A stretch of 64,000 nucleotides of DNA from Prorocentrum cordatum. Lineage: Eukaryota; Sar; Dinophyceae; Prorocentrales; Prorocentraceae. The translations under genes were made by a program, and so were the position numbers. Shown here one piece after another: positions 4,858 through 50,021 of this stretch. The stretch spans positions 237,001-301,000 of the forward strand of contig CAUYUJ010014258.1 in assembly GCA_963575745.1 (NCBI GenBank), given 5' to 3'. The notes under the pieces were generated by a model. It saw nothing but the letters and a program-made list of their open reading frames with translations. It was not told the origin of the DNA and made no database searches. The first letter of the stretch is position 1. Every line of letters begins with the position of its first letter.

Positions 4858-4952
4858 GCGCTGGAGGCGAAGCGGGCCCAGCAGGAGGCCGCGGAGGAGC
4901 GCCGCCAGAAGCGCGCCGCGGCGGTGGAGAGGCAGCAGGCCGAGACCCTCAG
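4858..4952 (+). CDS. GNL3/NUG1-like gene, exon A: basic coiled coil
   Basis: This segment reads ALEAKRAQQEAAEERRQKRA and continues with another dozen residues rich in Q, E, R and A, a charged coiled coil like the basic N-terminal region (GN3L/Grn1 type) of nucleostemin-family GTPases. It begins after a possible acceptor (GGCAG|GCGC) and ends at CTCAG|GACC, a GA donor. The two bases left over (AG) pair with the first G of the next exon to make Arg, giving ETLR-KTLDRADVLLQ, which matches the family context before the LDARDP motif. The start is the weakest boundary: the tract before it is not pyrimidine rich and the frame is open further upstream. Confidence 0.6.
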
Positions 4953-5123
4953 GACCGGGCGGCGTGGGGCGGGGGGGGGATTGGGGGGCGGCGAGGGGCT
5001 CGCGGAGCAGGACGCGCGGTCACGGGAAGGGGCGCGGGAGGGCCCCTCTGCCTCCCTTCCTGCCTCCCTCGCCTCCCTTCCGCCCGGCCTCCTCCCGTCC
5101 TCCTTCCTCCTCTCATCCTCCTC

Positions 5124-5202
5124 GTCGCCTCCTCCTCCTCCTCCTCCTCCTCCTCCATTCTGCTCGTCGTCGTCGTCGTCGTCGTCGTTGTCGTCGTCGT
5201 GA
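5124..5202 (+). repeat. CTC and GTC arrays before exon B
   Basis: CTC run to 5155 then GTC run to 5200, 50 bp upstream of the exon B acceptor; may add to the pyrimidine tract. Confidence 0.85.
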
Positions 5203-5253
5203 TCCCCTTCTTCTCCCACTCCCTCCCGTTCTTCTTCCACTCCCGTGCCGCAG

Positions 5254-5287
5254 GAAGACCCTGGATCGCGCAGACGTCCTGCTGCAG
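5254..5287 (+). CDS. GNL3/NUG1-like gene, exon B (KTLDRADVLLQ)
   Basis: This 34-nt exon follows a strong pyrimidine tract and GCCGCAG|G acceptor. It encodes KTLDRADVLLQ, equivalent to the family segment (K-V-x-E-x-A-D-V-I-L-x-V) that leads into LDARDPLG. It ends CTGCAG|GCCACT, a GC donor in phase 0, and joins directly to the VLDARDP exon at 7139. The exon is short, so the identification rests on the join with its neighbours. Confidence 0.75.
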
Positions 5288-5905
5288 GCCACTCGACCTG
5301 CCGCTCCACTGACAGCGACGGGAGGGTGTTTATGTCGAGGGTGTATCCGTCGGGCGAGGAGGACATGGCGGTGGAAGGAGAGGATGGAGGAGGAAGAGGA
5401 TGAGGGGTAAGAGACGATGAAGTAGGAGGGAGGGGGGCAGGAGGACGCGACACCCGAGCTGGTCAAGCGCGTGGCCCACCTCTGACGAGGGTACCCAGAG
5501 TGCCTGCGTGAATCCACATGCAGTCGGCCCATACAGCCTCAGGCCAGAGCCAGAGAACAGCGGCGGCTCACTTAGCCCGGAGCCGCCGCAGCTGCATGGG
5601 CTTTGGTAGCCAGCCGGAGAACACGGGCGCCGGCGCCACACCCACTTGCCCGCCGGCCCAACGAAGCGATGTATTACCCACGGCAGCTTTGGGACTTTAG
5701 TTCCCCATCACCTCCGAACGTTAGGAGGCCCCCGTGAGGCAACTCCGTATAAAGGAGCCCTTCCAGGGTGGATCCGAAGCCGGATCCTGCACTCGACTGG
5801 CTAGGCCGAGCGGCAAGAGTCTTTCCCCAAGCTGCGTTCAGCAAGGGTGACGATCGGGCTGCTACCCGCCTGTTTTCCAGAGACGGCCGAAGCCCTCTGT
5901 GGCAC

Positions 5906-6090
5906 AGGTGCCAGGAGGAGGAGGAGGAGGAGGAGGAGGACTAGGAGGAGGAGGCGGAGGAGGAGGAGGAGGAGGAGGAGGGGGAGGGGGGGCTGGAGGA
6001 GGAGGAGGAGGAGGAGGAGGAGGAGGAGGAGGAGGAGGAGGAGGATGAGGAGGAGGAGGAGGAGGAGGAGGAGGAGGAGGAGGAGGAGGT
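5906..6090 (+). repeat. GGA array
   Basis: Nearly pure GGA run inside the second intron of the GTPase gene. 5415-5905 and 6091-6380 hold no recognised gene. Confidence 0.95.
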
Positions 6091-6379
6091 TGAGGTACAG
6101 GAGAGGAGCAGATGTGCTGCATGGTCAGGGGGGCAGGCGACGGCCATGCGCGGCAGCAGCCCGAGTGCCCTGCCAGTGTGTCAGCGATGGCCGCGGCCTC
6201 AGGGAGGGCAGAGCCATGCCCCTCGGCTGTGCCTTCTTCTCGGCGTCGCATTCGTCGCAGGTAACGCACTGGTGGATGGGGCAGTGCGGGAGGCTAGGAA
6301 GTTAGGGGCTTCGTTTGGACTTCCGGAGGTCCCCAGGGAGCCTCGTGGCCTTCGGGGGCCTCTGGAACCTTTAGAGGCA

Positions 6380-6452
6380 TCCATATGTATATATATATAT
6401 ATAGATAGAGAGAGAGAGAGAGAGAGAGAGAGAGGGAGAGAGAGAGAGCGAG
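6380..6452 (+). repeat. TA and GA dinucleotide arrays
   Basis: TATATA followed by GAGAGA. A similar TC/TA pair is at 4540-4615. 6453-6985 shows no gene. Confidence 0.9.
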
Positions 6453-47671: not shown

Positions 47672-47810
47672 TGAGTATGTATGTAAGTATGTATGTATGT
47701 ATGTTTGTATGTATGTATGTATGTATGTATGCATGTATGTATGTATGTATGTATGTATGTATGTATGTATGTATGTATGTATGTATTTATCTATATAGAT
47801 GTGTGTATAT
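47672..47810 (+). repeat. TATG tetranucleotide array
   Basis: Third TATG array of the window. Confidence 0.95.
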
Positions 47811-47819
47811 ATACATATG

Positions 47820-48600
47820 TATCCAATGAGCCGCATTGGCCCGCCAAGGGTGGGGCGCGTGCTCCAGTGCTCGCGGACGTCAACGGGTGAGATCGATTAG
47901 CTGAGCGCGCAGGTGAGCGGGTTTGCGCGGACTGCGCCCAGGCAGCTCGCGAATCTCAAGCAGGCGCTTCTGTGACAGTCTCGCATTGTATTGGGTGGGG
48001 GAATAGTTCCGCCTGCTTTGGCTAGTGTTAAGGGTTCCGCTGGGAGTTGTTTCCAATCCTGCCGCTGGCGCCGTAAAATGTTATTGTGGTTGGCGCCGTG
48101 GGAGGTCAATGTGCCCTCGGGCAGGAACGAAGTCTGGTTGCCCTGAGGCCTGCCGGAACCAGGTCAACGCGTTCCCCCGCGAGGCAATTTTTCATGGAGA
48201 GGTGGTACGTTGAGCCCTCCTGTTGTGCTGTCACTTAGAAGGCGCGACGGACTCGTTTGAGAACCAGCCTCGAAGGGTAGGTTTGTCCCCCTTTCTACTG
48301 CCTTGCCTGTTTCTCACCCAAGCTGTCCGCTGCCTCGTTGTCCCTGGGGTATGCGAGCTTTCGGTGTTCCCGTGCCCGCCATATTCTCTGTTTTTACACG
48401 CCGCCATATTCATCCGCAAATGGAAATCATCTTTTCCCTTTTTGCATCCCTTTTTCTGGTGTCTTCGGCCTCCTGCTGCTGCTGCTGCTGCTCCTCATCC
48501 TCCATTCCTCTTCGTTATAAGTAACTATTCCTTGTCGCACCCCTAGGCTAGTTTTTTTGGCGGGTCGGACGCTTCGCCGTATAATTCTTTACCATTTTTG
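47820..48600. other. Non-repetitive intron sequence, no gene seen
   Basis: Mixed composition; a short CTG run at 48473-48495. Confidence 0.5.
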
Positions 48601-48624
48601 ACCGTGCAACTTCAAAAATGACAA

Positions 48625-48990
48625 CGGTTTGACGGATTGAGGGCGTTTTGTTGTTGTTGTTGTTGTTTTTTATTTTTGTTTTTTGTTCAAAAAATTGTGG
48701 TTCTCGCCATTGCACCGCTCACACCTGTCATAACAAATTGCAAGAGTTTCACGGATCGAGGACGGGTGTTTTTGAACATGTGGCTTTCGCTCCAGCGCCG
48801 CGCGCACTCTTTTAATACATTTGCAAAAGTTTCACGGACTGAGGGCGGGTGGTTTTCATACTCTGGTTCTCGCCTTAGCACCGCGCGCAGGAAAAAAGGT
48901 CTGCAGTCGTTTTGCGGATTGAGGGCGATTGATTTTCAAACTGTGGTTCTCGCCCGCTTTAGCGCCGCGCGCATTATTTATTATATTCTA
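48625..48990 (+). repeat. 80-bp tandem repeat, about four copies
   Basis: CGGATTGAGGGCG / CGGACTGAGGGCGG start units near 48632, 48754, 48835 and 48915; each ends with GTTCTCGCC and GCGCCGCGCGCA. The first is lengthened by a GTT run. Confidence 0.85.
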
Positions 48991-49293
48991 TAGTATACAT
49001 TAAAATGCAAGATTAAGGCACAAGTGTCACGGGTTCCCATTACCAGCGTACCAAGCAATGTGTTCTTGGAAGGTTTCAGGATTATGAGGGCGCAACGGTC
49101 ACGTTGATTCCTAGTGTTGAAGTCTCAGGGGTGGTGTTCCGGCTTGATTCGAGATCGCCAAAACGCAACAGTCAGGTTGATCCGTGGCGTTGGCAGTTCC
49201 GTCCGTGGAAATGAACCGTTGTAGGGGCCTATGAAGAGGGACCTTGGAGGGAAGGTTTATTCTATCATCGTTGCGGACTCTTGGGTTTTCGCT

Positions 49294-49937
49294 GGTTCTC
49301 TTCCTCCTCTTCCTCCTCGTCCTCGTCCTCAACCTCCTCGTCTTCCTCTTCCTCCCTCTTCCTGCTTCTCCTCCTCCTCGTCCTCCGCCCACTCCTCCTC
49401 CTCCTCCTCGTCCTCCGCCCACTCCTCCTTCTCCGCCTCCTCCTCTTCTTTCTCCTCCTCGCCCTCCTCTTCATCGTCGTCCTCCTCCTCCTCCTCCTCT
49501 TCCTTCTCCTTCTTTCTCCTCTTTTTCCTCTTCGTCCCTCCTCCCTCCTCCCTCCTCCCTCCTCCTCCTCCTTCTTCCTCTAGTCCTCCTCCTCTGGCAC
49601 CAGGGGTCCCGAGTCAGAGGGGACCCCCAGGATGTGCGGTCAGCACGCGCCCGCGGGTACACCCGTCCGCGCGCCCGGCCCCCGCGGCTGTGCGCTGCCG
49701 CTGGGCCAGCGCGGGGCGCCACCTTCGCCCCCACCGTTGCCGCCATCTTCCATCTCTCCATCCCCGTGTTCCTCCTTTTCCTCCTCCTCCTCGTCCTCCT
49801 CCCCGTCCTCGTCCTCCTCCTCCTCATCCTCCCCTTCCTCCTCCTCCTCCTCCTCCTCCTCCTCCTTTTCCTCCTTTCTCCTCCTTCTCCTCCTTTCTCC
49901 TCCTTTTCCTCCTCCTCCTCCCTCCTCCTCCTCCTCC
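49294..49937 (+). repeat. CTC/TTC pyrimidine arrays before exon F
   Basis: Two CTC-rich blocks (49294-49600 and 49770-49937) separated by GC-rich unique sequence. The second ends 19 bp before the exon F acceptor and probably acts as its pyrimidine tract. Confidence 0.9.
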
Positions 49938-49955
49938 CCGACGCGACGCGCGGAG

Positions 49956-50021
49956 GCCGTCGGTGTGGTGGGCTACCCTGGCACTGGCAAGCAGTCCCTC
50001 TGCAGGGCCCTGCGGCGAGAG
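49956..50021 (+). CDS. GNL3/NUG1-like gene, exon F (G1 P-loop)
   Basis: This exon encodes AVGVVGYPGTGKQSLCRALR followed by RE. VGVVGYPxxGK is the P-loop as found in the nucleolar circularly permuted GTPases (usually GYPNVGKSS). Here the Ser after the Lys is Gln, which would remove the usual Mg-ligand. The acceptor GCGGAG|G follows a long CTC tract (49294-49937) and the exon ends CGAGAG|GTGCGG, a canonical GT donor. Exons for G2 and G3 should follow; none was recognised up to position 64000. Confidence 0.85.

What the first reader, a model, noticed from the sequence alone, without database searches (positions are those of the whole stretch)
4858..50021. A 45-kb split gene for a circularly permuted nucleolar GTPase hidden between repeats
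Six exons of 34 to about 103 nt, scattered over 45 kb, join into one peptide in the order expected for nucleostemin/NUG1-type GTPases (coiled coil, LDARDP, G4, then G1). The first four junctions are phase-compatible and all acceptors are AG|G, which is very unlikely by chance. No single exon would be called by ORF-based annotation. Exons make up under 1% of the span.
Basis: partly seen in the sequence, partly recalled or inferred. Interest (0 to 1): 0.88.

Follow-up and report, generated by a model that had tools for sequence, protein, structure and literature searches.

The report
Dinoflagellate nucleostemin gene, GTPase motifs lost
The window holds the middle of a real, very long split gene from a dinoflagellate; it encodes the ribosome-assembly protein nucleostemin in a form that seems to have lost the parts needed to split GTP.

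Summary
The six segments are real exons, in order, one frame, every acceptor AG|G. A relative, P0128, is identical at 150 of 162 residues and corrects the model: exon 5 ends at 35401 and a missed 47-nt exon lies at 40603-40649, so the junction 35388|49956 is wrong. Splice-aware alignment scored 336, against at most 119 for 40 shuffled queries. Donors in the six bounded introns (301-17,697 bp) are GA or GC, usual for dinoflagellates. The 5' and 3' exons were not found in the window. The gene is of the nucleostemin (GNL3/Grn1/NUG1) lineage. More interesting: it has AKAD for NKxD and GKQ for GKS. In 72 related proteins G4 Asn is lost in 72, P-loop Ser/Thr in 68, DxPG in 71, and the P-loop-to-G3 stretch is 10-19 residues shorter in all; 38 of 39 other listed homologues are canonical. 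Best reading: a conserved pseudo-GTPase nucleostemin. Five paper searches found none describing it. Untested: nucleotide binding, structure, a second canonical copy.

The parts
4858..4952 (+). Exon 1 of the model (internal exon of the gene): coiled-coil segment ALEAKR...ETL; acceptor CAG|G, donor GA
   Evidence: 26 of 31 residues identical to P0128; not above composition shuffles with P0005; the alignment with P0128 ran the exon further upstream (4831 or 4732); the start 4858 rests on the acceptor and on identity from P0128 residue 57
5254..5287 (+). Exon 2, 34 nt, (R)KTLDRADVLLQ; acceptor GCAG|G, donor GC
7139..7205 (+). Exon 3, 67 nt; LDARDP motif at 7142-7159; donor GC
17528..17588 (+). Exon 4, 61 nt; G4 equivalent AKAD (canonical NKxD) at 17551-17562; donor GC
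35286..35401 (+).
40603..40649 (+).
49956..50021 (+). Exon 7; P-loop GYPGTGKQ at 49971-49994, Gln codon at 49992-49994 where canonical members have Ser; the end and the following GT donor rest only on where identity to P0128 stops
4953..49955 (+). Span of the six introns, 301, 1851, 10322, 17697, 5201 and 9306 bp, each ending AG|G
   Evidence: N run in intron 5

Best explanation
The window carries seven internal exons of a dinoflagellate nucleostemin (GNL3/Grn1/NUG1 lineage) gene spanning more than 45 kb. The exons are joined by spliceosomal splicing with dinoflagellate-style GC/GA donors and AG|G acceptors. Shown: exon structure by homology, lineage, altered G4 (AKAD) and P-loop (GKQ). Inferred from relatives: the rest of the protein has a basic Grn1 N-terminus, lacks switch I and a proper DxPG, and ends in an acidic tail. 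Inferred mechanism: it still docks on pre-60S particles in the nucleolus through the basic N-terminus and the folded core, but as a pseudo-GTPase. It may keep nucleotide or phosphate contacts (invariant GK and KxD) but should not coordinate Mg2+ normally, switch, or hydrolyse GTP. Its placing or release would then depend on partner factors, not on its own GTP cycle.
For: Gene: 150 of 162 residues identical to P0128, including 42 of 42 from the end of exon 5 through exons 6 and 7; longest exact peptide matches 22, 17, 14 and 14 residues, all on the + strand and in order; splice alignment far above controls; window groups with P0128 at support 100/99. Lineage: P0128 has GN3L_Grn1 at 45.2 bits, cut-off 22.3; the clade profile's best PDB match is human GNL3, 1.5e-65, residues 5-503 of 549. 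Lost motifs in 72 relatives: G4 Asn 0 of 72; P-loop eighth residue Arg 34, Lys 24, Gln 10, Thr 2, Ser 2; DxPG-type G3 in 1 of 72; P-loop-to-G3 spacing 17-26 residues (18 in 57 of 72) against 36 in 20 of 20 canonical rows. At E 0.001 MMR_HSR1 is not among the families matched by any of the 72; Grn1 matches 70, RsgA_GTPase 5. P-loop Gly and Lys and G4 Lys and Asp are kept in 72 of 72, which argues against random decay.
Against: The switch I/G3 part of the window's own gene was not found in the window. AKxD and TKxD can bind GTP in other proteins (septins, dynamins; recalled). Of 72 relatives, 4 keep Ser/Thr in the P-loop (P0104, P0132, P0134, P0135), 68 keep Asp or Glu at the G3 Asp site, and 2 hold a G2-like GxT[KR] string (P0085, P0117). 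No structure could be predicted and nothing was assayed. No transcript of this organism itself was seen; that P0128 comes from cDNA is inferred from its uninterrupted frame on contigs of at most 1556 bases. A truncated gene copy cannot be excluded, since no 3' exon was found in 50022-64000.
Confidence: 0.77

Rival explanations
1. A working GTPase with unusual motifs: AKAD/TKAD reads guanine as in septins, and Mg2+ or its charge is replaced by the Arg/Lys/Gln of the P-loop and the Glu/Asp of the G3 relic.
For: P-loop GK and G4 KxD invariant in 72 of 72; Asp/Glu at the G3 Asp position in 68 of 72.
Against: The stretch that holds switch I is 10-19 residues shorter in 72 of 72; DxPG-type G3 in 1 of 72.
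Confidence: 0.15
2. A pseudogene or truncated duplicate: the window's copy has lost its 3' half.
For: For P0128 residues 219-400 the window has no exact match longer than 5 residues; a Mei2-like RRM_2 ORF sits at 58831-59817 on the same strand.
Against: Seven intact exons with splice sites and frame kept, 150 of 162 residues identical; introns of 10-18 kb elsewhere in the gene make one of 14 kb or more plausible.
Confidence: 0.1
3. Chance: the reader stitched unrelated AG-flanked fragments guided by its memory of the family.
For: Low-complexity repeats do give spurious coiled-coil matches.
Confidence: 0.01

Closest known systems
Nucleostemin / GNL3 / Grn1 / NUG1 (KOG2484) of the YlqF-related circularly permuted GTPases
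   Same: Grn1 N-terminal domain (in P0128), coiled coil, LDARDP, G4-like before G1, C-terminal region alignable to GNL3, acidic tail (in P0128)
   Different: AKAD for NKxD, GKQ (R/K/Q in relatives) for GKS; shortened switch region and degraded DxPG in the dinoflagellate clade
NOG2/GNL2 and Lsg1
   Same: Permuted G-domain core; Nog2 is the best single PDB match of the six-exon peptide
   Different: Trees put the window with GNL3, not Nog2; P0128 matches only GN3L_Grn1 at 0.001, no NGP1NT
Septin pseudoGTPases
   Same: A GTPase fold kept after loss of catalysis, with changes in key G-motif residues (PMC10731463, passages)
   Different: Another GTPase family, not circularly permuted (recalled)
Dinoflagellate split genes, e.g. 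Prorocentrum cordatum
   Same: GC/GA/GT donors, AGG acceptors, mean intron 4709 bp, genome G+C 59.7% (PMC10666404, section 5 read); window G+C 60.1%
   Different: Species not established; no exact inverted repeat of 8 nt or more at the intron ends

Membership tests
Nucleostemin/GNL3/Grn1/NUG1 lineage (by descent) | Groups with GNL3, apart from Nog2, in a tree | tested here: met
Nucleostemin/GNL3/Grn1/NUG1 lineage (by descent) | GN3L_Grn1 (PF08701) N-terminal domain | tested here: inconclusive
   5' exons not found in the window; P0128 (150 of 162 identical where they overlap) has it; 70 of 72 relatives
Nucleostemin/GNL3/Grn1/NUG1 lineage (by descent) | LDARDP, then G4 region, then G1 region | tested here: met
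Active circularly permuted (YlqF-related) GTPase | G4 NKxD | tested here: not met
   AKAD at 17551-17562; Asn in 0 of 72 relatives
Active circularly permuted (YlqF-related) GTPase | G1 GxxxxGK[S/T] | tested here: not met
   GYPGTGKQ at 49971-49994; Ser/Thr in 4 of 72 relatives
Active circularly permuted (YlqF-related) GTPase | G2 and G3 (DxPG) | tested here: inconclusive
   Not found in the window; in relatives the stretch is shortened in 72 of 72, a GxT[KR] string occurs in 2 of 72, DxPG-type G3 in 1 of 72
Active circularly permuted (YlqF-related) GTPase | GTP hydrolysis | not testable with these tools
   No assay; structure prediction unavailable
Dinoflagellate spliceosomal gene | GC/GA/GT donors with AG|G acceptors | tested here: met
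   Donors GA, GC, GC, GC, GA, GC; acceptors AG|G 7 of 7, against the table in PMC10666404

The most novel reading that the evidence does not exclude
Across dinoflagellates, nucleostemin, elsewhere a GTPase of large ribosomal subunit assembly, became a pseudo-GTPase by a shared shortening (10-19 residues) of the switch I stretch plus loss of the Mg2+-binding Ser and the G4 Asn. A haptophyte-like group (one member named Isochrysis galbana) carries a similar loss, by shared ancestry, gene transfer or convergence. These lineages would build large ribosomal subunits without a GTP switch at this step.
Probability: 0.6. Interest if true: 0.72.

Novelty: new variant of a known kind. Interest (0 to 1): 0.6.

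Why it matters
Nucleostemin-type proteins are studied as GTPases of pre-60S assembly. A passage in PMC4588883 reports that deleting the GTP-binding motifs of the C. [quoted passage not shown] An algal lineage that keeps the protein but not the switch would be a natural test of what GTP hydrolysis is for at this step. The locus also shows how far exons can be scattered in a dinoflagellate genome and still be recovered by splice-aware homology.

Tried and rejected
Further exons: downstream sought with P0005, P0006 and P0128, upstream with P0001, P0006, P0093 and P0128; only chance-level or repeat matches. Extra exons that my splice alignment put in the flanks at low intron cost were rejected as fill-in. 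With P0128 the reverse complement scored 275, above the 40 shuffles (136-192), so a repeat-like tail adds much; the true strand scored 697. At intron costs -26 and -34 with P0005 the alignment replaced exons 1-2 by a GGA-repeat stretch, none of the five guides recovered exons 1-2, and at -34 the bird guide P0007 aligned only to a repeat. Introner origin: no exact inverted repeat of 8 nt or more at the ends of the six introns, so not supported. Viral and prokaryote contigs gave no relative. No tRNA, and no Rfam family at gathering score, in the window. Naming the species: G+C and intron statistics resemble Prorocentrum cordatum most among seven genomes in one table; not proof. First impression of Nog2: rejected by tree and domains.

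Rows left out of the 72: P0001 (diverges after the G5 region, probably a frame shift), P0006 (Effrenium voratum, no G domain in the model), P0155, P0159, P0160 (no Grn1 listed; they too are degenerate). One search scored 8000 candidates and listed only the best 120 of 334 hits, so a canonical dinoflagellate copy further down would not have been seen. The 20 canonical rows of A5 were picked by hand from that list; one search repeats the motif count on the 39 rows of P0154-P0199 that remain of 46 after leaving out four haptophyte-like and three degenerate rows: 38 canonical, 1 (P0199, named a chytrid) not.
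Full report
Observation. Each is open in the joined frame, follows AG and begins with G. The joined peptide matches the permuted nucleolar GTPases Nog2, GNL3, Nug1 and Grn1 in the PDB set and, below cut-offs, YlqF, RsgA and MMR_HSR1 profiles. To guard against a model stitched together from memory, I wrote a splice-aware protein-to-DNA alignment. At intron cost -26, P0005 scored 336 on the + strand; 40 shuffled queries gave 73-119, 20 block-shuffled windows 70-96, the reverse complement 109, the reversed sequence 72, the reversed query 90. At that cost the exon 4 region and the acceptor at 35286 were found by 5 of 5 guide proteins (P0005, P0001, P0012, P0007, P0002), the acceptor at 49956 by 4 of 5 (not P0001), and exons 1-2 by none (P0005 went through a repeat instead). 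At -34 the bird guide P0007 found none of the exons and P0012 lost 35286. Exons 1-2 came out with P0005 at the low cost of -14, and exon 2 with P0128 at all four costs tried.

Correction of the model. In a tree of 102 proteins the window peptide falls beside P0128, a 448-residue open reading frame from contigs of at most 1556 bases; that these are cDNA is my inference. The window encodes all 20 identically when exon 5 is read to 35401 and a 47-nt exon at 40603-40649 is added. The corrected model has seven exons and 162 residues, 150 identical to P0128, introns of 301, 1851, 10322, 17697, 5201 and 9306 bp, donors GA, GC, GC, GC, GA, GC, and AG|G at all seven acceptors. Exon G+C is 73.0%, third positions 89.5%. 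The window encodes P0128 residues 57-218 only; residues 1-56 and 219-400 give no exact match longer than 5 residues. The gene therefore runs off both ends of the window, or its 3' part is missing.

Is the layout special? For a dinoflagellate, no. The Prorocentrum cordatum genome paper (PMC10666404, section 5 read) reports mean introns of 4709 bp, donors GT 24.7, GC 51.4 and GA 23.8%, AGG acceptors in 79.7%, and genome G+C 59.7%; the window has 60.1%. A 26,372-bp intron is reported for another dinoflagellate (PMC11453091, passages). Size and splice sites are ordinary.

Which family? P0128 carries GN3L_Grn1. A profile of 72 relatives matches human GNL3 in the PDB at 1.5e-65, from residue 5 to 503 of the 549-residue chain. 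Trees with Nog2 as outgroup put the window inside a clade of GNL3-like proteins with support 100/100. Named members among the 72 are Symbiodinium natans Gnl3, Durusdinium trenchii and, by taxid, Amphidinium massartii; Effrenium voratum P0006 is a further relative.

The surprise. The window's G4 is AKAD and its P-loop GYPGTGKQ. These are traits of the clade, not damage of one copy. In 72 proteins the G4 Asn is Thr 32, Ala 31, Ser 8, Gly 1; the P-loop Ser is Arg 34, Lys 24, Gln 10, Thr 2, Ser 2; the P-loop Gly and Lys and the G4 Lys and Asp are kept in 72 of 72. The distance from the P-loop Lys to the G3 region is 36 residues in 20 of 20 canonical rows, but 18 in 57 of 72 and 17-26 in all 72. 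In the alignment the missing stretch holds G2/switch I, and LLDSPG has become WLL[E/D]xxG, with Glu 36, Asp 32 and Ser 4 at the Asp site. A G2-like GxT[KR] string was found in 2 of 72 against 14 of 20 canonical rows; in those two (P0085, P0117) it lies just before the WL stretch. A DxPG-type G3 is in 1 of 72. At E 0.001 MMR_HSR1 is not among the four families matched by any of the 72; Grn1 matches 70, RsgA_GTPase 5, AAA_16 4, ABC_tran 1. Of the 39 other listed homologues counted, 38 have Asn, Ser and G3 intact.

A second group. P0154, P0156 (named Isochrysis galbana, a haptophyte), P0170 and P0176 have GKR P-loops, no DxPG, and WL lying close after the P-loop (sequences; the cruder pattern counts one of the four as GKK). 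Their G4 is less uniform: TKAD in two, SRAD in P0176, and P0170 keeps the canonical Asn (NKCD). The tree joins them to the dinoflagellate clade at 99/97, but both stems are about 1 change per column, so long-branch attraction is possible. Shared origin, transfer and convergence all remain open.

How it most likely works (inference). The Grn1 N-terminus and core should still place the protein on pre-60S particles, as in GNL3 structures. Without Mg2+ ligands and switch I it should not cycle between GTP and GDP states. The invariant GK and KxD suggest that the pocket still holds something, perhaps nucleotide without Mg2+, or phosphate of RNA. This resembles septin pseudoGTPases in kind (PMC10731463, passages). 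By contrast Arabidopsis NSN1 hydrolyses GTP at 5.46 per hour, similar to yeast Nug1 at 6.6 (PMC4588883, passages).

Novelty. Searches for nucleostemin + dinoflagellate, nucleostemin + pseudo-GTPase, dinoflagellate + GNL3, dinoflagellate + ribosome biogenesis + GTPase + nucleolus and dinoflagellate + nucleolar GTPase listed no paper that, from its title and abstract start, or for PMC11896706 from passages, describes this. Most subscription papers are not in the held library.

Limits. No transcript of the source organism, no structure, no answer from the window's own genome (genome search did not complete), and the switch region of this very gene was not found in the window. A second, canonical dinoflagellate copy was not excluded.

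Noticed in passing
window 30281-33274, + strand: 998-residue open frame with a reverse transcriptase domain (RVT_1, 1e-12) inside intron 4: a retroelement lies in the intron.
   Followed up: partly
window 58831-59817, + strand: Open frame with an RRM_2 (Mei2-like) domain, 28.5 bits against cut-off 25: another gene or retrocopy, downstream of exon 7 or inside its next intron.
   Followed up: partly
window 42081-42944, + strand: dUTPase-like match just below cut-off (20.7 against 22 bits) inside intron 6.
   Followed up: no
window 36683-36782: 100-base N run, a scaffold gap in intron 5.
   Followed up: no
proteins P0154, P0156, P0170, P0176: Haptophyte-like nucleostemins (one named Isochrysis galbana) with GKR P-loops and no DxPG, grouping with the dinoflagellate clade; P0170 keeps the G4 Asn.
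   Followed up: partly
protein P0006 (Effrenium voratum): The predicted GNL3 keeps N- and C-terminal parts but no G domain; skipped exons in the gene model or true loss.
   Followed up: no
window 20633-25513, 39148-40531, 51278-52448: Long arrays of 3-base and 12-base tandem repeats among these stretches; some read as acidic or basic peptide runs and give spurious homology matches.
   Followed up: no
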